NCBI GenBank assembly: GCA_012728115.1
Contig: JAAYFS010000057.1
Coordinates: 1-32,050, forward strand
Direction of reading: 5' to 3'
From: Bacillota bacterium
GTDB taxonomy: Bacteria; Bacillota; Limnochordia; Darwinibacteriales; JAAYFS01
Length of the DNA: 32,050 bases
Of this stretch, positions 14,559 through 26,240 are shown in pieces. The notes below the pieces were generated by a model, which had not been told where the DNA came from, searched no databases, and worked only from the letters and a program-made list of their open reading frames with translations. Both the position numbers and the translations under genes were made by a program. Each line of letters starts with the position of its first letter. Position 1 is the first letter of the stretch.

Positions 14559-15884
14559 TTACTGGTCAAACAACTCGTCAAGGTAAGCTTGGATAGCTGG
14601 TTCGATAGCTGCCAATCCTACGCTTGCTTCTGTCTCACCGCTTAAGATTTCAACAACCGTATCTGTAAACCCTGGAATTGATGAGAATACGTCAAGAAGC
14701 ATAGCTGGTTGAGCGTTCTCTGTGACCCAAACGATGTTTTCGTAGGTCTCAAGATCTTGAGAGTAGTTTGCAACGTTTGAATAGTACTCTTCTTCCCAGT
14801 AGTCAAGATCATCAATATAAGGTTCAGCAAGATTGTAGAGCGCATGCCATAATTCGATCAAAGCCTCTGGGTTTTGTGCTGTGATTGGAAGAACTGCCAC
14901 CCAGCGGGCAAACTCGATTGCAACGTGCTTATCTGCACGAGGTCCTTTTGGTAGTGGAACGAATCCAAAGTTAAAGTCAACGTTTCCGAAACGTCCTACC
15001 TCCGCAGCAAAGTCAACGTAGAGAGCCACGTTTCCTTGGGAGAATTCAGCCCAGAAAATTGTATCCGAAACTGTGTTATGCTCAGTAATTAACCGATACC
15101 AGAACTCATATGACTCTATGGCTGCATCGGAATTGAGATCGTAAATAACTTTTCCGTCGACTTCTTTCACTAGCGCACCTTCATTGGTGTAAACCCAGAA
15201 GGTTTGGAATCTGTAGTCAAGACGTCCGTCCCTAATTTCAACGCCCCATTGGTCGATTTCTCCGTCACCATCGGTATCCTTGGTAGCAGCGATAGCAATT
15301 TGTTCAAATGCATCCCATGTCCACTCACCATTCGCATAGAGTTCGTATGGATCTGGGAGGCCATATTGTTCGATAATGTCCTTATTAAAGAAGATACCAG
15401 CTGCCTCTGTTCCCATTCTTGGACCAAAAGCAAAGGCCCAGTTCTCGCCTAAGAAAGTAGTAAAGCGTTCGATTGGCTTCAATGGAGCTGGAAGACGAGC
15501 AAAATAATCTTCATTGATCCATTCTGTAACAGGCATAATTAAGTTGTTAGCAACTAGAATAGGAATAATGGTGTCCGTAGTAACAGCAATGGCATTTCCT
15601 TCACCAGCGATTACACGAGGTAGTAAGTAGTTAATGGCTTCAGTATAAGGCCATTGACTTGTAACCAAGTCCCACTCGAGATTAACATTAAACATTGCTT
15701 CGATGTCTTCCCAGTGTGCTTCCCATCTTGGATCAGCAAAGTTCTCGTTTGTAATTCTATTGTATTGTTCTCCAAACCAAACAGACTGACCTAAGTAAAC
15801 CGTTTCTCCCCCAAAATCAAAAGCGGCTGCGGCTGGAATTGTTAAAAGACCAACCAGCAACATTATTGCAATTAGCTTTCTCAC
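14559..15884 (-). CDS. Extracellular solute-binding protein (family 1), orphan
   Basis: A 441-residue exported binding protein of the carbohydrate ABC type. The signal peptide is MRKLIAIMLLVGLLTIPAAAA with a signal peptidase I site and no lipobox cysteine. A calcium-like loop DTDGDGEIDQWG (about 215-226) and the aromatic-rich body are typical of large sugar-binding proteins. The start is GTG at 15884 with GAGGAG upstream. No permease or ATPase of a sugar importer is in the window, and the gene has its own promoter and terminator. A soluble binding protein without a lipid anchor implies a true periplasm. The ligand cannot be read from sequence. Confidence 0.88.
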   Translation of the reverse strand: MRKLIAIMLLVGLLTIPAAAAFDFGGETVYLGQSVWFGEQYNRITNENFADPRWEAHWEDIEAMFNVNLEWDLVTSQWPYTEAINYLLPRVIAGEGNAIAVTTDTIIPILVANNLIMPVTEWINEDYFARLPAPLKPIERFTTFLGENWAFAFGPRMGTEAAGIFFNKDIIEQYGLPDPYELYANGEWTWDAFEQIAIAATKDTDGDGEIDQWGVEIRDGRLDYRFQTFWVYTNEGALVKEVDGKVIYDLNSDAAIESYEFWYRLITEHNTVSDTIFWAEFSQGNVALYVDFAAEVGRFGNVDFNFGFVPLPKGPRADKHVAIEFARWVAVLPITAQNPEALIELWHALYNLAEPYIDDLDYWEEEYYSNVANYSQDLETYENIVWVTENAQPAMLLDVFSSIPGFTDTVVEILSGETEASVGLAAIEPAIQAYLDELFDQ

Positions 15885-16015: not shown

Positions 16016-16091
16016 TTTCTCCTTTTCATTTTTACATAAATTTTACTAACTTTACTCCGAATAGATCGGAAATTTTTTCTATTAAAAAATA

Positions 16092-16124
16092 AAAGAGGCT
16101 ATGACTTAATACCACAGCCTCTTT
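16092..16124 (-). terminator. Terminator of the export operon
   Basis: On the minus strand AAAGAGGCTGTG pairs with CATAGCCTCTTT (one G-U pair), followed by TATTTTTTAATAG. It lies 16 bases after the stop of the last operon gene. Confidence 0.9.
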
Positions 16125-16140
16125 CCAGAAGCGTTACTTT

Positions 16141-17607
16141 TTAATAAAAACTAACCGATTCACCAATGAGTAAGTTCAGTTCCATTACTTGAACGAGGAA
16201 ATTATGCTCTTTTTCTAATAGATCCAATTGACTTTCCTTCAATCGTTGCTCTAACTGACGTAAAGTTTCCTCATCACTTAAGTTACGTTCAAAGAGTTGC
16301 TCTCCACGTAGCTTTTCTAGGAGTGATCTTTCATAATTTAGTTGAGCGATCTCAATCTCTTGTTCGATATCCTTTATTTGCGTGAACGTTGAGCGGATTG
16401 CTGCTTCAAGTCTTGCTTTTTCAGCTTCATAATTTTCAATAGCTACTTCCAAGTTTTGTTCCTTCTCAGAAATCACATGGATTTTAGTTGGACTTGCTAA
16501 TGGATAGCTTATGTTTAACATTACAACCCATTGCTCTGGGAATTGTTGATTAATGCTGTAACCGCCAGTTACATTACCAGTTGGTCCATAGATTCTTCGA
16601 GTCGAATCCAAATCGTCCTTCGCTCTTTCAACAGCCTGTTCTGCCTGTTTTAAACTCGCTGCTGTTGCTAATCTACGAGCGATGTATTCGTTTTCGCTCA
16701 ACAAATCACTAGCAATCTCTAAGTTTATAACCGATGGGAATTCCACTTCTGCGTTGCTATCCAATCCAAGGACTTCTTTGATGGAATCCACCAGCTGTTG
16801 ATAGGAACGCTCAGCCCTTTGGAAATTCAGCTCTGCTTGTCGAACATTGATCTTCGCACTAAGAAGATCAATTTCATTAGCAGCTCCAATCTCATACCTT
16901 GATTGGGCATCTTCATAGGATTGACGAACTCTTTCCAATGAGGCTTTAGAAAAATCCAACCGTAACCTTGTGGTTTCCAGTCGGAATAAGCGATCATATA
17001 AATCTATTTTCGCTCTTTGTTGAGCTAACCATACCGCTTCATTAGCCGATTCCAACTGAAGTTCAGTGTTTTCGACTTGTTGGAGAGACGCTAGCGGTGG
17101 AGTTTTTGTGAATAACGGTTGATTTACGTAAAATCTATAGCCATACTTTGGCTCATTTTCGCCGAGAACATTTCTAGAAACGGAAGCCTCTGCCCTCAAA
17201 CCGAAATCAAAGCTGGTATTTACCCCCAGACTAAGCGATTGTGAGCCTTTAGCAATATTTCCAGATAGGATAGTTTCTGTATCTACACCCATCGGTAAAG
17301 TTGTATTGTTTCTGATACTCATTGATACCGATGCTTGTTTTGCATCGACTCGGTACAGTGGTGTAGCACCGATACTCAAATTTGGAGCAAACACCCCTTT
17401 AGCGATTGCTAAATCCCGTTCAACTGTTTCAAGACTCTGCCTTGCGGCTAGCACTTGTGGATGGTTTTCAACTGCCAGATCCAGTGCTTCTTCAAAGGTT
17501 AAAGATAATGGTTCAGAAGCTAATGTTGAACTAGGAATGAGTAAAATCGCCATTAGTAACAGAGTTAAACCTGCCACTAATCTTTTCACCGACAAATTCT
17601 GCAACAT
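16141..17607 (-). CDS. TolC-like outer-membrane efflux protein
   Basis: A 488-residue exported protein with signal peptide (cleavage near TLAS-E, residue about 30) and two outer-membrane-efflux halves. Each half starts with LSLTFEEALDLAVENHP-like helices and long heptad-rich coiled coils, and strand-rich stretches lie between (about 90-175). The length suits TolC-family trimers that form a channel through an outer membrane. The frame opens at 17655, but GGAGGAAGAG before ATG 17607 fixes the start, 35 bases after the preceding gene. It is the last gene of the export operon. The last residues, SVSFY, end in an aromatic as many outer-membrane proteins do. Such a protein makes sense only in a diderm cell. 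Confidence 0.88.
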   Translation of the reverse strand: MLQNLSVKRLVAGLTLLLMAILLIPSSTLASEPLSLTFEEALDLAVENHPQVLAARQSLETVERDLAIAKGVFAPNLSIGATPLYRVDAKQASVSMSIRNNTTLPMGVDTETILSGNIAKGSQSLSLGVNTSFDFGLRAEASVSRNVLGENEPKYGYRFYVNQPLFTKTPPLASLQQVENTELQLESANEAVWLAQQRAKIDLYDRLFRLETTRLRLDFSKASLERVRQSYEDAQSRYEIGAANEIDLLSAKINVRQAELNFQRAERSYQQLVDSIKEVLGLDSNAEVEFPSVINLEIASDLLSENEYIARRLATAASLKQAEQAVERAKDDLDSTRRIYGPTGNVTGGYSINQQFPEQWVVMLNISYPLASPTKIHVISEKEQNLEVAIENYEAEKARLEAAIRSTFTQIKDIEQEIEIAQLNYERSLLEKLRGEQLFERNLSDEETLRQLEQRLKESQLDLLEKEHNFLVQVMELNLLIGESVSFY

Positions 17608-17642
17608 TTTACTCTTCCTCCTCGCCTTGACTAACACTCCAC

Positions 17643-18710
17643 TTATAGTGGCCATACAGAAAGACCTAAATCAGAGCGAAACTGGATGACAGATGTTAAG
17701 AATGAAACTCTAGTATCCATAGTTTGATTTACAGTATTTAAGTACGAATTCTTGCTTTGAGTAAGTTGAGTCTCTGTAATTAAGCCTATTTCATGTTGTT
17801 TTATGCTACGTTGATAGTCTTCTTCAGCAAATCGAAGATTAAGATTTGCCGATTCAAGTGATCGCTTGGAATCTTGCATACTATACCAACGATCTACGAA
17901 TTGACGTTCAACATTCCGTTCAACTTTTAGTTGATTCAACACCGTAACTGCAAAATTATTTTCAGCTTTTTGTAACTCTAGTGGTGCTGGGTTTTGTGCT
18001 TTAATTTTTTCAAAATTGATTTCTGCTAAACGATAATTTATTGATTGTTGCCAAATACCAAGATTGTTTTCTTTGGCAAGTCGTAAGGTATCGTTGAGTT
18101 CTAAATCAAAGGTAACAACGGGAACCTCTGATGGCAGAACCGCCTTATCATAATTACCAATAACACCGAGAACGAAAAGGAAATCGTTCAGAGCGTTTTG
18201 ATATGTTCTTTGAGCAGAAGCTAAGGCCGCTTGGCTAGCCTCATAACTCTTTTCTTCACGCAAGAGATCTCTTTCTGGCAACTCGCCTAATTCTACTCGT
18301 CTTTTTACCAACTGATACGAGTTTTGAGCTACTGCTTGGTTATTCTCTGCAATTTCAACCAAACGACCAAGTTTTTGGAGATTAAAATAATCTCTAATGG
18401 TGTTCACGATGGCGGAAACGTATGCGCGATTAAGATTTTCTTCGTTAGTACGGGTCAAAAGTTTGAATTGAAGCTTCTCCTCTTCGGTTTCTAGAGGTCT
18501 AAGAGCTCTTATTTTTTCGTCAATCTGCGTATTTTCCCAGGTTAGCAGTTCAATTTGGTAATCAATATTATTTTCCAAAGCCAAATCGATAGCTTCTTCT
18601 AATGTTAGGGTCAATACTTTTGAGGTATCCGCTGAAATTACTCCAGAACAAATGACTAATACAAGGGCAATTACTGAAAGACTTTTTAATAAACCTAATC
18701 TATTTTTCAT
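17643..18710 (-). CDS. Short TolC-like coiled-coil protein
   Basis: A 355-residue exported protein with a signal peptide (cleavage near GVISA-D, residue 27) and no lipobox. It opens with LTLTLEEAIDLALENNIDYQ, the start typical of TolC-family repeats, and a second repeat-like start, NDTLRLAKENNLGIWQQ, lies near residue 210. The rest is almost all heptad helix. Unlike its neighbour it has little that could form the beta-barrel strands, and it is about 130 residues shorter. It may be a helical tunnel element or periplasmic bridge that works with the full-size channel. ATG 18710 has GGAGGGG 6 bases upstream. Confidence 0.8.
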   Translation of the reverse strand: MKNRLGLLKSLSVIALVLVICSGVISADTSKVLTLTLEEAIDLALENNIDYQIELLTWENTQIDEKIRALRPLETEEEKLQFKLLTRTNEENLNRAYVSAIVNTIRDYFNLQKLGRLVEIAENNQAVAQNSYQLVKRRVELGELPERDLLREEKSYEASQAALASAQRTYQNALNDFLFVLGVIGNYDKAVLPSEVPVVTFDLELNDTLRLAKENNLGIWQQSINYRLAEINFEKIKAQNPAPLELQKAENNFAVTVLNQLKVERNVERQFVDRWYSMQDSKRSLESANLNLRFAEEDYQRSIKQHEIGLITETQLTQSKNSYLNTVNQTMDTRVSFLTSVIQFRSDLGLSVWPL

Positions 18711-18751
18711 TTAATCCCCTCCATATGTATTATTATCCTTAAAACAAGTTT

Positions 18752-19792
18752 CTAACCCTGCTCGGCTTGTCGCAAATCACCACCTTCATCTCCCTCGGAT
18801 GGATTCTGCTTCGGCGGACGTATTATTATACAGTCTTCACCTTTTTCCATAGCTGCTCGGCCCTTTATTCCTAGTTCTTTTAGATATTCTTCAGGAATCT
18901 GTAGCCTGCCAGCGGAATCCAGGACTGAATAATGGATATGAGTCTTACTCTCTTCCGACAATCCAACGTGTAATCCAATATTTTGAGTATATCTTTCTGA
19001 ATCAAATTTTTCTGTCCGAACACTTTCTGTAGTAATTTTTCCGTCACGAATTTCTACTACACGATCTACCGCACTCGCTAGACCACGGTCGTGTGTTACC
19101 AAGACAACTGTTGTACCAAATGTTTCACAAACCGTTCTAAAAACTTTTACGATTTCATCACCAGTCTTAGAGTCTAGCGAACCGGTTGGTTCGTCTGCGA
19201 GGAGCACCTTAGGTTTATTTGCTAAACCAATTGCGATCGCAACCCTTTGTTGTTGTCCTCCAGACATTTCTAAAGGTCGATGTTTCATTCTATCGGCTAA
19301 TCCTACCGCTGTTAGAAGTTCACGTGCCCATTCTTCACGTTCCTTTTTACCCCCCAGGATCATTGGAACCTGAACATTCTCCAGGGCAGTAAGATATGGA
19401 ATCAGGTTACGTCCAATATTCTGCCACACGAAGCCAACCACGTCGCGACGGTATGTAATACTGTCGCGACGACTTAAGTTGTTTATATCCCATCCTGCAA
19501 CACGAACCCTACCAACTGATGGTGAATCTAATCCTCCAAGAATATTTAATAGCGTAGTCTTTCCGCTTCCGCTACTACCGATTATGGCCATTAATTCACC
19601 TTTTTTAATGGACAAATCCAACCCTTGGAGGGCCATAACCTCAAGATCAGCAACCTTATATATCTTAACTAAGTTTTCACATTCAATAATTGTTTCGCCT
19701 TCCATGGCGACAGGTGTCTGTTTATAGAACAGGTCAACAATTTTTGCTTTCCAGCCACCTTGTTTCTTGATATTTTCTAGAATCTTAGACAT
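18752..19792 (-). CDS. LolD/MacB-type ABC ATPase with a C-terminal AbrB-like domain
   Basis: Cytoplasmic ATPase of a mechanotransmission-type ABC system. Visible parts are Walker A GSSGSGKT (72-79), a Q-loop in VWQNIGRNL (122-130), signature MSGGQ (176-180), Walker B VLLADE (196-201) and H-loop H234. An extra N-terminal 35 residues is present. After about residue 255 comes an acidic linker and then, at 288-328, YSVLDSAGRLQIPEEYLKEL and IKGRAAMEKGEDCIIIRP. This has the GR-x-x-IP and hydrophobic-end pattern of the AbrB/MazE/SpoVT swapped hairpin. In an ATPase this domain probably aids dimerisation or sensing rather than DNA binding. It overlaps the permease stop by one base. Confidence 0.9.
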   Translation of the reverse strand: MSKILENIKKQGGWKAKIVDLFYKQTPVAMEGETIIECENLVKIYKVADLEVMALQGLDLSIKKGELMAIIGSSGSGKTTLLNILGGLDSPSVGRVRVAGWDINNLSRRDSITYRRDVVGFVWQNIGRNLIPYLTALENVQVPMILGGKKEREEWARELLTAVGLADRMKHRPLEMSGGQQQRVAIAIGLANKPKVLLADEPTGSLDSKTGDEIVKVFRTVCETFGTTVVLVTHDRGLASAVDRVVEIRDGKITTESVRTEKFDSERYTQNIGLHVGLSEESKTHIHYSVLDSAGRLQIPEEYLKELGIKGRAAMEKGEDCIIIRPPKQNPSEGDEGGDLRQAEQG

Positions 19793-22653
19793 TAGACTTC
19801 CTCCCCAAGTTTGATAGCTTGGTGTAAGCGCATGCGGCTAATGACAACACCGAGACCAATGATACCGATCAACAGTGTTACACCTATCACGATACAGATC
19901 TGGAGAATGTCGCCAGGTCTAACAACAACTAAGAAATCTGGAACCGCGCCTGCAAGATCTTGGGTGATTTGCATAAATGGAATAAATACGTAACTTACAA
20001 CAATTCCAAAGATCGTTCCAAATCCCAAAGAAACTCCTACAGATAGTATCTGTTCAATACTTAACATGCCTATCAACTGACCAAAAGATAGCCCTATCGC
20101 TCTTAGTACTCCAAACTGTAACATTCTATCTTTAAGAGATAAGAATGTATAAAGGAGGAATCCGACAATAGTGATTACTACCGACACTAAGAAACTAATT
20201 GTAAGCATTCCGAACAACCCCATCCGTTGAGGATCGCGTCTACCTTCGATCAATTTAGTTCTAGCGTCATTAACTCCCGTGACATAAACCCCATGTTCCG
20301 CTAATTCCTTAATAATCGGTGCCAATTCCGCACCATCTTCTACGCGTAACCAGACATTGTATGGTTCGATAACGTATTGGGACTGAATATAGTCCAGGTT
20401 ACCAACAATTAATGGGAATTCACGTGGATATACAGTTGGCCACAAATCTACTACTCCCGCTATCCAGAAGTCGATCTTTTGCTGATTAATTTCAGCCACA
20501 ATCCAGTCGCCGATTTGTAATCCGAAATTTTCGAAGAACAAGCGATCGACTAAAGCTGCTTCAGGATAAAGGATTAAGCGATTTAGATATTCGTGCAAAT
20601 GATAATCTGTTAAATCTCTTCTATACCAAGCAACATTGGCAAAATCAACGGGATCGATACCCATAATCGTTCCATTGCCCATCATCATATTTCCGATTCC
20701 AACACGAATCGTATTTTTGAATACTCTCGCTGCATCAATTACACCAGGCATTTCTTTATGGACATAGAAAGGAGGCTCAGCAATCTCACGAAGGTCAGGA
20801 ATAGCCTCCCCAGTAACTGGGTCTATTCCACCACCGATACTTGAAACTACCCAATTCTCTGTCAATACTACATCACTACCAACGCGATATAGTTGAGAGT
20901 CGATATAGTTTTGGTCGATCGTACGGGCTATCGATGCACCATATATTCCTAAGGATACAGTTAGAATAATAAACAACATCAGTGGACTATATCTACCTGG
21001 ATCTCTCGAGAACTGCCTCAAGGTCATTGACCATTGAACATCAGGTAATCTTTTCGTTACAAATGAAAGTAACCTAATGAGCCATGGCAATACTCTCAGC
21101 ACAAGCAAGCCCGCAGTTAATAAAAATAATACAGGCACAAGGAACAACATCGGATCCACAATTAACTGGGCTTGGGTGTTCGTCGCTGCGGTCATTGAAG
21201 CTATTTGAGTTTCCAAATTGCGATAGCCATAATAACTAACGATCAAAAGGCCGAAATCCAAGAAATACCGTTGCCAAAACGGAGTTCCACTGCCTCGCGC
21301 AATATCTTGCTTATAACTAACGATACTGTGGCGAGCTGCAGGAATCACCTGGAATAAACAAGCAACAAGCGATAATCCTAACGCGATCAACGAATATTTA
21401 TAGGCATCGGGATTTAACATTACGGGCAATGGTTCTCTACCTACAAAGGATAGGAATCCTGCCGACGCACCCATTACCTTCGAAATCAATACTCCTAGGT
21501 GAGGTCCAATAGCAAGGGCTACTACACTTAAAATACCCCACTCCAAGGCATAGATAACAATAATTTGAGTTAATCCAGCCCCGCGACTTTTGAGCATTGC
21601 AATTTCGTTTCTTCTTCTACGAATGGTTAGACCTGCTACAAGGATGGTATAGTAAAGAACTATTCCTAAAACAGGCAAGCTCAAAATTAAGAGTAATTGT
21701 TCCAAAACTGTGGCACGACTGATAAAGGTGTTAAACATATTTACAGGAGTTTTTGTGAATCGAACATTATTCGTAAGCTGAAGCATTCTCGATTCAAGAT
21801 TTGTTAACCCCTCAACAATTTGCGGAAGTTCATGCACCCTAACTGTGCTATGATCAAATACCCACATCCACTCGTAAGTGTAAGGAACGAGATCGTCGCG
21901 CTTAACCAGTTCCTCAAAGACTTCTTTTGACACCATAAAACTCTCTGAAAACGGAGCATTCAACACCCAAACAGGTTTGTTGTACGCTTCGATATCTGTT
22001 CTATAAATACCAACAATTTTTACATCAATAAATTGTTGGACTTGCCCAGGTTCTCGACGCAAAGGAAATAGATAGGTTCTACCTACGAAAAGACCCAGGT
22101 TATCACGAGCGGTTTCATCGATTACTACTTCAATGGCATCACCCGTATAAGCTGTCTCAGGATCTGGCCATCTTCCTTCAATAATAGTCACATGGTCTTC
22201 CAAGCCAGTAAGATACCTAATATCAGCATATCTTCTCCCTGGCCAACCATCTTCTTCAACTGGTCGGAACCATTGACGCTCAATCGTGCCAACCTGAGCA
22301 AAATATAAGAGCTCCTCGCCGAATCTAACTGGCATTTCCTCTTTCAACATACTATCCAATGCCAAAAATTCGCCAAAAGCTTCATCCTGATCCCGCCATT
22401 GACTAGGATTGAATACAGGATGGTAGTCCTTCCATTGCTCATTACTAACGCGAATCATGCCTGGAGGATTTCGTGGCGAAGATCCAGACTCCCACGAACT
22501 CATTAAGCCATATTGGAGTGATGCTTCTGAATACAATGGAATACTGGAAAAAACACCTACGGCTAAGGTTAAACCTAGTAGTAAGATTAACTCTAGTTTC
22601 CAGTTGTTCCATATTTGTTTAATCATTATCCATAAAACGGTTATAACACCCAC
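19792..22653 (-). CDS. Large FtsX-family ABC permease with two FtsX units
   Basis: A 953-residue inner-membrane protein of the MacB/LolCE superfamily. A single N-terminal membrane helix (about 19-41) is followed by a large extracytoplasmic domain (about 45-315). Three helices form the first FtsX unit (316-345, 362-392, 419-440), followed by helices near 463-480 and 501-530. A second N-terminal-type helix (about 556-578) leads to a second outer domain (580-810), and a second FtsX triplet lies at 815-838, 862-893 and 917-940. The loops RRRRNEIAMLKSRG and KDRMLQFGVLRAIG are the cytoplasmic coupling regions of each unit. So one chain seems to equal a MacB dimer. The start is GTG 22653 with GGAAGGTG upstream. 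Confidence 0.9.
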   Translation of the reverse strand: MGVITVLWIMIKQIWNNWKLELILLLGLTLAVGVFSSIPLYSEASLQYGLMSSWESGSSPRNPPGMIRVSNEQWKDYHPVFNPSQWRDQDEAFGEFLALDSMLKEEMPVRFGEELLYFAQVGTIERQWFRPVEEDGWPGRRYADIRYLTGLEDHVTIIEGRWPDPETAYTGDAIEVVIDETARDNLGLFVGRTYLFPLRREPGQVQQFIDVKIVGIYRTDIEAYNKPVWVLNAPFSESFMVSKEVFEELVKRDDLVPYTYEWMWVFDHSTVRVHELPQIVEGLTNLESRMLQLTNNVRFTKTPVNMFNTFISRATVLEQLLLILSLPVLGIVLYYTILVAGLTIRRRRNEIAMLKSRGAGLTQIIVIYALEWGILSVVALAIGPHLGVLISKVMGASAGFLSFVGREPLPVMLNPDAYKYSLIALGLSLVACLFQVIPAARHSIVSYKQDIARGSGTPFWQRYFLDFGLLIVSYYGYRNLETQIASMTAATNTQAQLIVDPMLFLVPVLFLLTAGLLVLRVLPWLIRLLSFVTKRLPDVQWSMTLRQFSRDPGRYSPLMLFIILTVSLGIYGASIARTIDQNYIDSQLYRVGSDVVLTENWVVSSIGGGIDPVTGEAIPDLREIAEPPFYVHKEMPGVIDAARVFKNTIRVGIGNMMMGNGTIMGIDPVDFANVAWYRRDLTDYHLHEYLNRLILYPEAALVDRLFFENFGLQIGDWIVAEINQQKIDFWIAGVVDLWPTVYPREFPLIVGNLDYIQSQYVIEPYNVWLRVEDGAELAPIIKELAEHGVYVTGVNDARTKLIEGRRDPQRMGLFGMLTISFLVSVVITIVGFLLYTFLSLKDRMLQFGVLRAIGLSFGQLIGMLSIEQILSVGVSLGFGTIFGIVVSYVFIPFMQITQDLAGAVPDFLVVVRPGDILQICIVIGVTLLIGIIGLGVVISRMRLHQAIKLGEEV

Positions 22654-22696
22654 TAAGCTAACACCTTCCTTCCAACGACCTCTGGGACCACTAATC

Positions 22697-23722
22697 CTAC
22701 TTACCGATGACTTCTTGACCTTCTTCTAATCCTTCTAAGATTTCAACATGAGTCTGGCTAACAAGTCCGGTAACTACGTCAATTTCTTTTCGAACGTCGC
22801 CATCCATGATATGAACAAACGTTCTGTCTCTAAACTCACGCAAAGCAGCTCGAGGCAGGAGGAGAGTGTCTTTGCTTTCCCTAACAATAATTCTAGTTTG
22901 TAGCAAGCTATTATAAGTCAAATCCTTCCATCTACTTTGGTCAACCAAATCAAAGTATGCAAAGCGCTCGCTACTCGAAGCAGTCGAAGAGGAAACTTGG
23001 CTAACCACGGCATCAAGATCTTCCCCAGTTTGGAGTCGGATCTTAGCTGGCATTCCTACTTCTAATTGTCGAGCTTGTTGTGCAGTAATAGACATTTGGA
23101 GAACTAATTTAGTTGGATCAACAATTAAAACAGCACCTTCATAAGCGGCTACATTATGTGCCGGCTTGATGGAAACGTTATCAATTCGGCCCGCTACCGG
23201 AGCTCGCAAAGTAACTGCTTCTAATTGATCATTAAGCCGGTCAAAATCCATTTTCGCCAACGTATAATCGATCATCAGCGATTCCCAGTCATACTTATTC
23301 ATATAACCTTCGATCTCCGCAAGCTCTTCCATTCTTTCTATGCGCATTTCAATCCTACGAAGTCCAAGTCTACTTCTCTCGTGGTTATACTCTAAATCAC
23401 CAGACTCTAATCTGGCCAGTGGTTGCCCTTCTTCAACCCAGTCTCCGTACTTAACAAAGACATCACTAACACGTCCACCATATGTAAAGTAAACCTCTTG
23501 TTCAATCTCCGAAGCTACTCTTACTAAACCACTAACTTGTTCAGTAATATCACCGCGCACCACCATATGAAGTGTTTGGCGTGGTTTAGGCGGTTCAATC
23601 AATGGGGGAGGAGCGTCTACTTTCTCGGCTGGAAGAAGTTCGCACCCACTTAAGAAAATGCCAAATAAGAGCGCTAATAATAAAAATAGATTTTTACTAA
23701 ATTTTCTTTTTCTAACTAGCAC
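22697..23722 (-). CDS. Periplasmic adaptor (membrane fusion) lipoprotein
   Basis: A 341-residue adaptor of the HlyD/AcrA family that would link the permease to the TolC channel. A lipobox LSGC (Cys27) marks it as a lipoprotein. A proline-rich stretch follows. The first lipoyl half is YFTYGGRVSDVFVKYGDWVEEGQPLARL (about 78-105), a short helical hairpin spans about 107-162, and the second lipoyl half is VTLRAPVAGRIDNVSI. A beta-barrel and membrane-proximal domain follow to the end. The start is GTG 23722 with AGAGGAG upstream, 15 bases after the ATPase gene. The hairpin is shorter than in AcrA, which fits a partner with a long tunnel. Confidence 0.9.
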   Translation of the reverse strand: MLVRKRKFSKNLFLLLALLFGIFLSGCELLPAEKVDAPPPLIEPPKPRQTLHMVVRGDITEQVSGLVRVASEIEQEVYFTYGGRVSDVFVKYGDWVEEGQPLARLESGDLEYNHERSRLGLRRIEMRIERMEELAEIEGYMNKYDWESLMIDYTLAKMDFDRLNDQLEAVTLRAPVAGRIDNVSIKPAHNVAAYEGAVLIVDPTKLVLQMSITAQQARQLEVGMPAKIRLQTGEDLDAVVSQVSSSTASSSERFAYFDLVDQSRWKDLTYNSLLQTRIIVRESKDTLLLPRAALREFRDRTFVHIMDGDVRKEIDVVTGLVSQTHVEILEGLEEGQEVIGK

Positions 23723-23737
23723 TAATAATCACTCCTC

Positions 23738-24448
23738 TTAGATTATCTCTCCATCATGTAATTCATAGACAATATCGCCAAACTGCATTGTCGCTGGGTC
23801 ATGAGTAGCAACACATATGGTGATACCACGTTCTCTAACTAGTTCCTTAAACAATTGCATAACTTGCATTCCAGTTGCGAAATCCAACTCTCCAGTAGGC
23901 TCGTCCGCAAGAATTAATTCTGGTTCTGTAACAATTGCTCGAGCGATACCGACACGCTGCTGTTCTCCACCACTAAGTTCAAAAGTTCTATGACTCGCCC
24001 GTTTCCTCAACCCGACAATTTCCAAAGCTCTATTCGTCCTTTTTTCACGTTCAGCCCAGGGAACGCGATTTATTCGTAACGCTAATTCCACATTCTCAAA
24101 CGCTGATAGGATTTGAATCAATGGAGATGTCTGGAAAACAAACCCTATTTGTTTCCTGCGCCAAGTAGTTAATTCCCTTTCCGAAAACTTAGTTAAATCT
24201 CTCCCTTGAAAAAGCACAGTACCTGATGTAGGTTGGTCTAATCCACCAATAATATTGAGGATTGTTGTTTTACCTGAACCCGATGGTCCTTTTAGGATAA
24301 CTAATTTGCCTTTTGGGATGTTTAGTGTAATCCCTCGCAATGCGTGAACTGGTTGGTTGTCTACTAAGTATGTTCGCACAACATCCTTTATTTCTACGAT
24401 ATTCTCAGGCTTCTCTGAATGCGTGCTTGTTTTTGCAGACTGCTGCAA
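23738..24448 (-). CDS. MacB/LolD-type ABC ATPase
   Basis: A 236-residue ATPase with Walker A GPSGSGKT, Q-loop FVFQTSPL, signature LSGGEQQRVGIARA, Walker B LILADEP and the H-loop in VATHDPA. It lacks the C-terminal extension of the second ATPase of this operon and has normal size for MacB, LolD or FtsE-like proteins. GAGGAGGG abuts the TTG at 24454 but lies 6 bases before the TTG at 24448, so the latter is the better start. It is the first gene of the operon, upstream of the adaptor. Together with the other ATPase it could form an unequal pair under the double-FtsX permease. Confidence 0.9.
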   Translation of the reverse strand: MQQSAKTSTHSEKPENIVEIKDVVRTYLVDNQPVHALRGITLNIPKGKLVILKGPSGSGKTTILNIIGGLDQPTSGTVLFQGRDLTKFSERELTTWRRKQIGFVFQTSPLIQILSAFENVELALRINRVPWAEREKRTNRALEIVGLRKRASHRTFELSGGEQQRVGIARAIVTEPELILADEPTGELDFATGMQVMQLFKELVRERGITICVATHDPATMQFGDIVYELHDGEII

Positions 24449-24498: not shown

Positions 24499-24515
24499 AA
24501 ACCTCAATGAGGTTT
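24499..24515 (-). terminator. Terminator between the GGDEF gene and the export operon
   Basis: On the minus strand AAACCTC and GAGGTTT flank a small loop, followed by TTTTTTT. It stands about 135 bases after the GGDEF gene stop and about 50 before the export operon start. Confidence 0.6.
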
Positions 24516-24650: not shown

Positions 24651-26240
24651 CTATTTTAACTTGATCATATTTTCGATCGCTTTGCTAACACATTGGTACT
24701 TCTGTTCAACTTGCTTAGAGTCTGAAATGTCCACTCCAACGAGGCTGATTAGATCTTGTTCAGGAAGATAAATCAACTGCCATGAGATCCAGACTATACT
24801 ACCAGAGTCAGTAAGACATCTGGTTTCAACCGTCTTAGCTGAATGTTCCGAAGAGATCAATTTTAGTACCGAACCAAATTTGCTCCAATCCTCTTGATGG
24901 ATTATATGTCCTATATGGCTAGGACTTGAGCTATGGGAAAAGTCGCCAAGTAGTTCTTCCCACGCAGGATTAACCTGCAATATTCTACCCGTTAAAGTTA
25001 TCATAGCTTGCAAATGAATGGAATCGTCGAATAGCTTTTTACAATCTGGAGGCAGAACCCCTACTAAAGCGACTTCTTCATCCATTTCATTCAGAATTTC
25101 ATCGTCAATTTCACCCATTAACGCAGCCATTTCTTCACAGGTAAGTTCTGGTTTGATATATTCACCAGTTTTTAAAGGAACGTTATCTCCGTTTGAAGCT
25201 AGCTTTTTTACCAATAACTCAAGTTGTTTCAATCGCTCACATATTTCTGAAATTTCGCTTTCTTCGCCACTATCTTCCGACTTCGCCCCCTTATTAAGTG
25301 CGAACTTGATGGTGTTACCACCAGCTTGCTTTGCTTTATACAACGCTTTATCAGCTAGCTCAAGTAATCTCTCGCTATCATAACAACCATCAGGCATTAT
25401 ACAAGCAATACCAGCACTGATAGTTACAGACCTATGACTATTTTCACCACATTCAATAGCTAATGCCTCGACACATGAACGCATCTTGCTCGCTACAATA
25501 CTAGCTCCCTCATTTGGGGTATTTGGTAAAACGGCAACAAATTCATCACCGCCGAAACGTGCAAGAATATCGCCAGGGCGTCGCAGAGTCGCTTTCAAGG
25601 TTTGAGCGACCACCTTTAAGCAACGATCACCAGCTTGATGCCCAAAGCGATCATTAAATGTTTTAAAGCAATCAATATCAATAAAAATAAGTGAGATAGG
25701 ATATTTTTCGCGCGCCGCTCGGCGAACCTCGGTGATTAGCACGCTGTCAAAAGCACGCCTATTCAATACTTGAGTTAAGCTGTCGATCGATGACAAGGCT
25801 TGCAAAACCTGATTAGCGTCTTTTAGCTGTCTTAGCTGTTCTCGAAGACTCTTTTCCTGATAATGCAATCGCTCAAGTTCGTATTTCCTTTTTAAGGCAT
25901 TGCGCACACGAACACAAAACTCTTCCTTGTCTAAAGGCAAAAATACAAAATCGCTTACTCCGACGGCAAACCCATATTTGAAAACAGCACTATTATGATT
26001 CTCGAGGATAACGATAATTGGTGCAGTACTGCATATCCGATTATTGTGTAAATCGCTAAGTAGTTCGAGTGACTCTGACTTCATATTCATTATCACCATG
26101 TCGACAGAAGATAAAGGAACTTGCGGAGATAATTCATCGATAGAATCAATCATGATAATCTCTTCATACCCTGCTTCTTGAAGAAAAGAGTTGATCATCG
26201 TTCGAGTTTCTTCACAACGGTCTATTAAAACAATACTCAC
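24651..26240 (-). CDS. Diguanylate cyclase with pseudo-receiver and C-terminal PAS domain
   Basis: A 529-residue cytosolic signalling protein. Residues 1-118 form a receiver-like domain lacking the phospho-acceptor: the expected Asp is Asn52 (MNM), the Thr/Ser position is Glu80, and the Lys position is Leu101. So it cannot be switched by normal phosphorylation. A coiled coil (about 120-150) leads to a GGDEF domain with an intact GGDEF (230-234) and inhibitory site RPGD (221-224), so it probably makes c-di-GMP under product inhibition. An acidic linker (about 315-400) is followed by a PAS-like domain (about 405-510), an unusual position after the catalytic domain. The start is GTG 26240 with a weak ribosome site. 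Confidence 0.88.
   Translation of the reverse strand: MSIVLIDRCEETRTMINSFLQEAGYEEIIMIDSIDELSPQVPLSSVDMVIMNMKSESLELLSDLHNNRICSTAPIIVILENHNSAVFKYGFAVGVSDFVFLPLDKEEFCVRVRNALKRKYELERLHYQEKSLREQLRQLKDANQVLQALSSIDSLTQVLNRRAFDSVLITEVRRAAREKYPISLIFIDIDCFKTFNDRFGHQAGDRCLKVVAQTLKATLRRPGDILARFGGDEFVAVLPNTPNEGASIVASKMRSCVEALAIECGENSHRSVTISAGIACIMPDGCYDSERLLELADKALYKAKQAGGNTIKFALNKGAKSEDSGEESEISEICERLKQLELLVKKLASNGDNVPLKTGEYIKPELTCEEMAALMGEIDDEILNEMDEEVALVGVLPPDCKKLFDDSIHLQAMITLTGRILQVNPAWEELLGDFSHSSSPSHIGHIIHQEDWSKFGSVLKLISSEHSAKTVETRCLTDSGSIVWISWQLIYLPEQDLISLVGVDISDSKQVEQKYQCVSKAIENMIKLK

What the first reader, a model, noticed from the sequence alone, without database searches (positions are those of the whole stretch)
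16141..24448. Six-gene asymmetric export machine with two ATPases, a double-FtsX permease and two TolC-like proteins
Seen: ATPase, lipoprotein adaptor, 953-residue permease with two FtsX triplets, second ATPase, short TolC-like, full TolC-like, all on one strand with gaps of 43 bases or less. Known: MacAB-TolC uses a permease dimer with identical ATPases and a single TolC. Inference: here one chain replaces the permease dimer and two different ATPases fill the two coupling sites, giving a built-in asymmetric transporter that spans two membranes. The cargo is unknown. I do not recall a described system with this exact set.
Basis: partly seen in the sequence, partly recalled or inferred. Interest (0 to 1): 0.75.

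Follow-up and report, generated by a model that had tools for sequence, protein, structure and literature searches.

The report
Two-ATPase exporter with one permease
This is a genuine six-gene membrane machine whose one permease protein is consistently accompanied, across two bacterial phyla, by two different ATPase motors (occasionally fused into a single protein), which suggests a built-in two-motor version of the MacB/YbbAP export machines that nobody in the literature I could search has described; what it moves is unknown.

Summary
In detail: ATPase 1, lipoprotein adaptor, 953-aa permease, ATPase 2, short TolC-like and full TolC-like genes form one operon. The permease models as a 10-TM, YbbP-like pseudo-dimer (Foldseek top hit YbbAP), so the single-chain permease is known. 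The two ATPases are the new part. Among 168 distinct relatives from Limnochordia, Paenibacillus, Clostridia and Chloroflexota, 97 have both ATPases beside one permease. Fourteen genomes with ATPase-less permeases encode the same pair elsewhere, side by side. Two Chloroflexota genomes fuse the pair into one protein. Each ATPase forms its own clade, keeps every catalytic motif and has a fixed Q-loop residue (F versus W, 93/93 each). This favours an ATPase heterodimer, but the contact was not modelled and coevolution was inconclusive; AbrB folds normally pair, a caveat. The TolC pair is a lineage add-on: the short TolC lacks the beta-barrel segments, and short+full tandems recur with other Limnochordia pumps. 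Solute-binding proteins recur in related operons, so export itself is unproven. Verdict: a widespread, apparently undescribed variant of Type VII ABC transporters.

The parts
23738..24448 (-). ATPase 1 (ATP1), about 236 aa, LolD/MacB/FtsE-type ABC ATPase, no C-terminal extension, Phe before the Q-loop Gln; start TTG at 24448
22697..23722 (-). Lipoprotein adaptor (membrane fusion protein, RND_mfp/HlyD_D23), 341 aa, lipobox FLSGC
19792..22653 (-). 953-aa permease: 10 TM helices, two FtsX units, two MacB-like periplasmic domains, two coupling helices (about residues 345-360 and 840-856); YbbP-like
18752..19792 (-). ATPase 2 (ATP2), 346 aa: ABC ATPase (about residues 30-260), Trp before the Q-loop Gln, plus AbrB-like C-terminal domain (about residues 286-330)
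17643..18710 (-). Short TolC-like protein, 355 aa: signal peptide and both helical repeats, beta-barrel segments missing in both repeats
16141..17607 (-). Full-length TolC-like outer-membrane factor, about 488 aa from the ATG at 17607 (504 aa if the start is 17655)
16091..16125 (-). Terminator-like hairpin (15 pairs) just after the last gene: probable end of the operon
24499..24515 (-). Small terminator/attenuator-like hairpin upstream of ATPase 1

Best explanation
A Type VII (MacB/FtsX-superfamily) ABC transporter built on one pseudo-dimeric 10-TM permease and energised by a heterodimer of two dedicated ATPases. INFERRED steps: ATP1 and ATP2 form one ATP-sandwich dimer under the permease, one on each of its two non-equivalent coupling helices. 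Both ATP sites can hydrolyse. Closure of the dimer is relayed through the TM bundle to the two periplasmic domains (mechanotransmission). The lipoprotein adaptor passes the motion or cargo to the outside, and in this diderm Limnochordia host to a TolC-type outer-membrane duct. The AbrB-like tail of ATP2 is a docking or regulatory module. The ATPase pair can act as a shared motor for several permeases in one cell. SHOWN computationally: fold and topology of the permease, domain make-up of all six proteins, intact motifs, the conserved co-occurrence and the natural fusions. NOT shown: the actual heterodimer, the direction of transport and the cargo.
For: One permease next to both ATPase types at 53 loci in the first survey and 97 of 168 distinct permeases in the larger one, with the same set kept in three gene orders (ATP2-ATP1 after the permease in 79, flanking in 16, ATP1-ATP2 in 2). 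Two natural fusions ATP2-AbrB-ATP1 beside a permease (L140, 575 aa; L265, 564 aa). All 14 genomes checked for ATPase-less permeases encode an ATP2, with ATP1 adjacent to it in the loci read; one genome has five permeases and a single ATP2. ATP1 and ATP2 form separate clades (support 0.965 and 0.99) whose distances track the permease (r 0.92 and 0.89). All catalytic motifs intact in both; the residue before the Q-loop Gln is F in 93/93 ATP1 and W in 93/93 ATP2. The two coupling helices are each conserved but different (EIAxLKSRGAS and QFGVLRAIGLS). Permease model pLDDT 80, 10 TM, nearest solved structure YbbAP, E 9e-21. The host genome also has a double-FtsX permease with a single adjacent ATPase, so a second ATPase is not a general feature of such permeases there.
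Against: No complex was modelled. Inter-protein covariation with 51 and then 93 sequences did not assign ATPases to coupling helices. AbrB folds are normally swapped dimers, so an ATP2 homodimer would satisfy that tail better. In solved relatives with a single-chain permease the ATPase pair is identical (YbbAP-TesA 2:1:1; PMC12646458). The two ATPases of the Bacillus Ytr operon, once placed in one transporter, are now proposed to serve two separate ones (PMC12772383). In G1071 the two genes lie on different contigs. Solute-binding proteins inside related operons leave room for a role other than export.
Confidence: 0.68

Rival explanations
1. Homodimers: the permease binds two copies of one ATPase (as YbbA on YbbP or BceA on BceB); the other ATPase serves another permease or replaces the first under other conditions.
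For: All solved single-chain relatives use identical ATPases (PMC12646458). The AbrB tail of ATP2 belongs to a dimer-forming fold. Many ATPase-less permease paralogues exist.
Against: No second permease in the operon. Both ATPases persist together across two phyla, and the orphan-permease genomes checked also carry both, side by side. Two natural fusions. Fixed, different Q-loop residues.
Confidence: 0.2
2. Ordinary MacAB-TolC-type efflux pump with a redundant duplicated ATPase; nothing special about the pairing.
For: Adaptor, FtsX permease and TolC are present; both ATPases are LolD/MacB-class.
Against: The ATPases are two old, separate clades with different signatures, not a recent duplication; the permease is YbbP-like, not MacB-like; most of the family has no TolC in the operon.
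Confidence: 0.07
3. Not an exporter but a sensory or hand-over machine that works with extracellular solute-binding proteins (a ligand-driven relative of BceAB sensing, LolCDE-LolA hand-over or YbbAP-TesA extraction). This concerns the function and is compatible with the ATPase heterodimer.
For: SBP_bac_1 proteins overlap or sit inside the operon in Paenibacillus (L029, L084, L086, L128) and Chloroflexota (L140, L166, L171, L177; and between ATP2 and ATP1 in six genomes, several of them checked for Pfam domains). Two Limnochordia loci (L043, L044) have SBP, MalF-like and MalG-like genes upstream of ATP1.
Against: Adaptor plus TolC in the window fit export. The window's own SBP lies beyond a terminator-like hairpin and is only weakly related to the others. 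SBP genes are common and most loci lack one.
Confidence: 0.25

Closest known systems
YbbAP-TesA (E. coli, Type VII ABC; PDB 9GE6-9GE8)
   Same: 10-TM single-chain pseudo-dimeric permease with two coupling helices (TM2-3 and TM8-9) and two periplasmic domains; separate ATPase protein; top fold match
   Different: Two identical YbbA (2:1:1 with TesA); no adaptor and no TolC; no AbrB tail
MacAB-TolC
   Same: FtsX/MacB-type permease fold, periplasmic adaptor, TolC duct; ATPase class
   Different: Homodimer of a fused ATPase-permease chain; one TolC; no second ATPase
BceAB / PsdAB
   Same: Single-chain 10-TM permease with separate ATPase
   Different: One extracellular domain, identical ATPases, antimicrobial-peptide resistance and sensing; no adaptor
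LolCDE
   Same: Two non-equivalent permease halves; ATP2 is closest to LolD by NCBIfam score
   Different: Halves on separate chains (LolC, LolE); identical LolD pair; hands lipoproteins to LolA
YtrBCDEF (Bacillus subtilis)
   Same: Two different ATPase genes in an operon with an FtsX-type permease
   Different: Now proposed to be two separate transporters, YtrB2CD and YtrE2F2 (PMC12772383), with additional permease genes

Membership tests
Type VII ABC transporter (MacB/FtsX superfamily) | FtsX-type TM bundle with large periplasmic domain(s) between TM1 and TM2 | tested here: met
   Pfam FtsX x2 and MacB_PCD; AlphaFold model with 10 TM and two periplasmic domains; Foldseek matches YbbP, BceB, MacB, LolC/E
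Type VII ABC transporter (MacB/FtsX superfamily) | Mechanotransmission coupled to ATP binding and hydrolysis | not testable with these tools
   Needs biochemistry; catalytic motifs are intact in both ATPases
YbbAP family | Single-chain 10-TM pseudo-dimeric permease with coupling helices between TM2-3 and TM8-9 | tested here: met
   Model topology, conserved candidate coupling helices, top fold match
YbbAP family | One kind of ATPase, two identical copies per permease | tested here: inconclusive
   Two ATPase genes conserved with one permease and two fusions, but stoichiometry not measured
MacAB-TolC tripartite pump | 4-TM permease fused to its ATPase, acting as homodimer | tested here: not met
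   953-aa permease has no ATPase domain and two FtsX units
MacAB-TolC tripartite pump | Adaptor and TolC-type duct with the permease | tested here: met
   Operon genes 22697-23722 and 16141-17607; TolC absent next to most relatives
TolC / outer membrane factor (short protein) | Two helical repeats of the OEP family | tested here: met
   Pfam OEP; profile of 12 short proteins matches OprM and TolC helices, E 1e-21
TolC / outer membrane factor (short protein) | Beta-strands that build the outer-membrane barrel | tested here: not met
   Barrel segments of both repeats missing in 12 loci; single-sequence model all helix, low confidence
AbrB/SpoVT fold (tail of ATP2) | Sequence profile match to the AbrB swapped-hairpin domain | tested here: met
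   Profile of 29 tails hits AbrB E 4e-4 and MazE weakly; MraZ in 7 of 9 and MazE in 4 of 9 members scanned, as weak matches
AbrB/SpoVT fold (tail of ATP2) | Swapped dimer, DNA binding | not tested
   Dimer state and DNA binding need experiment

The most novel reading that the evidence does not exclude
A widespread, undescribed branch of Type VII ABC transporters in which a single-chain permease is driven by an obligate heterodimer of two dedicated, catalytically complete ATPases, one with an AbrB-like module, used as a shared motor by several permeases in one cell, and in Limnochordia linked to a duct in which a barrel-less TolC-like protein works together with a full TolC.
Probability: 0.45. 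Interest if true: 0.75.

Novelty: new variant of a known kind. Interest (0 to 1): 0.6.

Why it matters
The 2018 review of the MacB family lists the known arrangements of permease and ATPase units and, in the passages I read, describes no case with two different ATPases or with two ATPase domains on one chain (PMC5985334); I found none in the papers I could search. If right, this gives a natural system in which each half of a mechanotransmission transporter can be mutated independently, so that the question of whether the two ATP sites act alternately or together in Type VII transporters becomes directly testable. The family is common (138 of 396 genomes in one Chloroflexota class draw) and has no assigned function.

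Tried and rejected
Inter-protein mutual information between coupling helices and the ATPase helical subdomains with 51 and 93 sequences: no assignment. Degenerate-site asymmetry (as in TmrAB): rejected, all motifs intact in both. Recent duplication of the ATPase: rejected by the tree. Window SBP as operon member: not supported, terminator-like hairpin between. Apparent further ATPase fusions in L167, L230 and L232: judged to be ATP2 ORFs read from a distant upstream start (L230 was inspected; scores for all). Apparent A2-only loci: in six genomes an SBP gene lies between ATP2 and ATP1; others are contig ends; in G1102 no ATP1 was found and ATP2 lies near a contig end. Single-sequence model of the short TolC is low confidence (pLDDT 59) and was not used for a fold search. 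Literature searches for AbrB-tailed ABC ATPases returned nothing.

Full report
OBSERVATION. Two starts can be refined: TTG 24448 for ATPase 1 and ATG 17607 for the full TolC-like protein, both preceded by a well-spaced Shine-Dalgarno. A strong terminator-like hairpin follows the last gene (16125-16091) and a smaller one lies about 50 bases upstream of the first. The window is contig C48 of a 1.9-Mb genome; the nearest named relative is a Limnochordia bacterium (59% identical permease in L028). Limnochordia are one of the three Firmicutes lineages described as diderm (PMC10665443).

PERMEASE. An AlphaFold model from 14 relatives (mean pLDDT 80) has ten TM helices arranged 4+2+4, with two MacB-like periplasmic domains and two cytoplasmic turns between TM2-3 and TM8-9 (TM count is my reading of the helices). 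Foldseek ranks YbbP of E. coli YbbAP first (E 9e-21), then BceB, MacB and LolC/E. In YbbAP-TesA the coupling helices lie at the same two places and two YbbA bind one YbbP (PMC12646458). The two candidate coupling helices are each strongly conserved but differ from one another.

TWO ATPASES. I collected relatives from named genome contigs, from the order and class, the phylum and Chloroflexota, and read the neighbourhoods. In the first survey 53 loci had both ATPase types next to one permease; in the larger one 97 of 168 distinct permeases did, 51 had none within the fetched stretch, and 20 showed only one. The single cases that I examined are mostly contig ends or stretches cut short; in six genomes (G759, G826, G927, G987, G963, G862) ATP1 follows ATP2 after an intervening gene of about 2.8 kb. 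Fourteen genomes, most of them chosen because they have permeases without adjacent ATPases, all encode an ATP2, and ATP1 lies directly beside it in the loci read. In G450 five permeases go with one ATP2 locus, which suggests a shared motor; this is inference. In G1071 the two genes lie on different contigs, so linkage is not absolute. Two Chloroflexota genomes fuse the two into one protein in the order ATP2-AbrB-ATP1: L140 (575 aa) and L265 (564 aa), 51% identical to each other, with permeases 36% identical. They could descend from one fusion event.

SEPARATE AND INTACT. On a tree with other ABC ATPases from these loci, ATP1 and ATP2 fall into two groups (support 0.965 and 0.99; the only stray was an ORF whose ATPase part had been cut off by my length limit). 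Walker A, Q-loop, signature, Walker B Glu and H-loop are intact in both, so this is not an active/degenerate pair. The residue before the Q-loop Gln is Phe in 93/93 ATP1 and Trp in 93/93 ATP2. The Q-loop lies at the interface with the permease in ABC transporters (established knowledge), so this is the expected kind of place for a partner-specific difference. Distance matrices of permease and ATPases are congruent (r 0.86-0.92), which shows common descent rather than contact.

ABRB TAIL. ATP2 has an extension after the ATPase domain. A profile of 29 tails matches AbrB in the PDB (E 4e-4) and MazE weakly; individual members match Pfam MraZ or MazE weakly. The strongly conserved part reads VLDSAGRLQIP. 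AbrB folds are normally swapped dimers (established knowledge). That favours two ATP2 copies near each other, either as an ATP2 homodimer (the main rival) or between two neighbouring transporters; in the fused proteins the tail sits between the two ATPase domains.

TOLC-LIKE PAIR. The short protein has a signal peptide and both OEP helical repeats but lacks the barrel regions of both repeats, as do 11 others. A profile of the 12 matches OprM and TolC helices and skips the barrel. A single-sequence model is all helix, with low confidence. By my count, at least 30 short+full tandems occur in 15 Limnochordia-class genomes, and neighbouring genes in several belong to other pump types. The short family's profile matched in 194 of 299 genomes drawn from the phylum; I could not check which of these have an outer membrane, and some matches may be fuller proteins. 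Among the loci read, the TolC pair is next to the four-gene core only in the window, L043 and L081.

SOLUTE-BINDING PROTEINS. SBP_bac_1 genes overlap or adjoin the operon in Paenibacillus and in several Chloroflexota, and lie between ATP2 and ATP1 in the six genomes above (Pfam-checked in several; L236's fragment gave no match while the L288 piece of the same genome did). In L043 SBP, MalF-like and MalG-like genes lie directly upstream of ATP1; in L044 they lie further upstream (MalF/MalG judged from sequence by eye, not searched). In the window an SBP_bac_8 gene lies 256 bases downstream but beyond the terminator-like hairpin. These are numerous gene families, so part of this may be coincidence; the overlapping cases are hard to dismiss.

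MECHANISM. The best reading is a pseudo-dimeric Type VII permease driven by a heterodimer of ATP1 and ATP2. Contact, stoichiometry, direction and cargo are not shown. The cautionary precedent is YtrBCDEF, whose two ATPases are now proposed to serve two transporters (PMC12772383); here there is only one permease gene, and there are fusions. Coevolution tests were inconclusive.

LITERATURE. The MacB-family review describes homodimeric, heterodimeric and fused permeases, with the ATPase as a separate protein whenever permeases are fused; the passages I read mention no two-ATPase variant (PMC5985334). Full-text searches found no description of this set or of AbrB-tailed ABC ATPases; most subscription papers are not covered. 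I therefore call it an apparently undescribed variant of a known kind.

Noticed in passing
window 17643-18710; L043, L058, L062, L064, L081, L088-L093: A family of TolC-like proteins without the beta-barrel segments, usually followed by a full-length TolC-like gene in Limnochordia; its profile matches in 194 of 299 genomes drawn from the phylum. May deserve a study of its own.
   Followed up: partly
L029:11834-13324, L084:5819-7270, L086:5455-6921, L128:535-2010, L140:216-3008, L166:1486-2856, L171:935-2308, L177:9125-10528; window 14559-15884: Extracellular solute-binding proteins next to or inside the operon in several lineages; a 930-aa one with two SBP stretches in L140.
   Followed up: partly
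L043:9230-14303; L044:8798-13113: Sugar-importer-like genes (SBP, MalF-like, MalG-like) upstream of ATPase 1 in two Limnochordia.
   Followed up: no
L063:6996-10221 (own genome, contig C19): An 848-aa double-FtsX permease with a single adjacent ATPase in the same genome: an ordinary one-ATPase counterpart.
   Followed up: partly
L141, L143, L144, L149, L153, L175, L182 and others: Permease paralogues with no ATPase gene nearby, common in Chloroflexota; they may share one ATPase pair.
   Followed up: partly
L081:2247-11402: In G099 another ABC ATPase and a short+full TolC-like pair lie directly upstream of the four-gene core.
   Followed up: no
window 24651-26240: Response-regulator/GGDEF/PAS protein directly upstream of the operon on the same strand.
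   Followed up: no
L041:4645-7596, L132:1523-4909: Three tandem genes with adaptor-like matches (two of them weak) before an ATPase-less permease in a Defluviitaleaceae genome.
   Followed up: no
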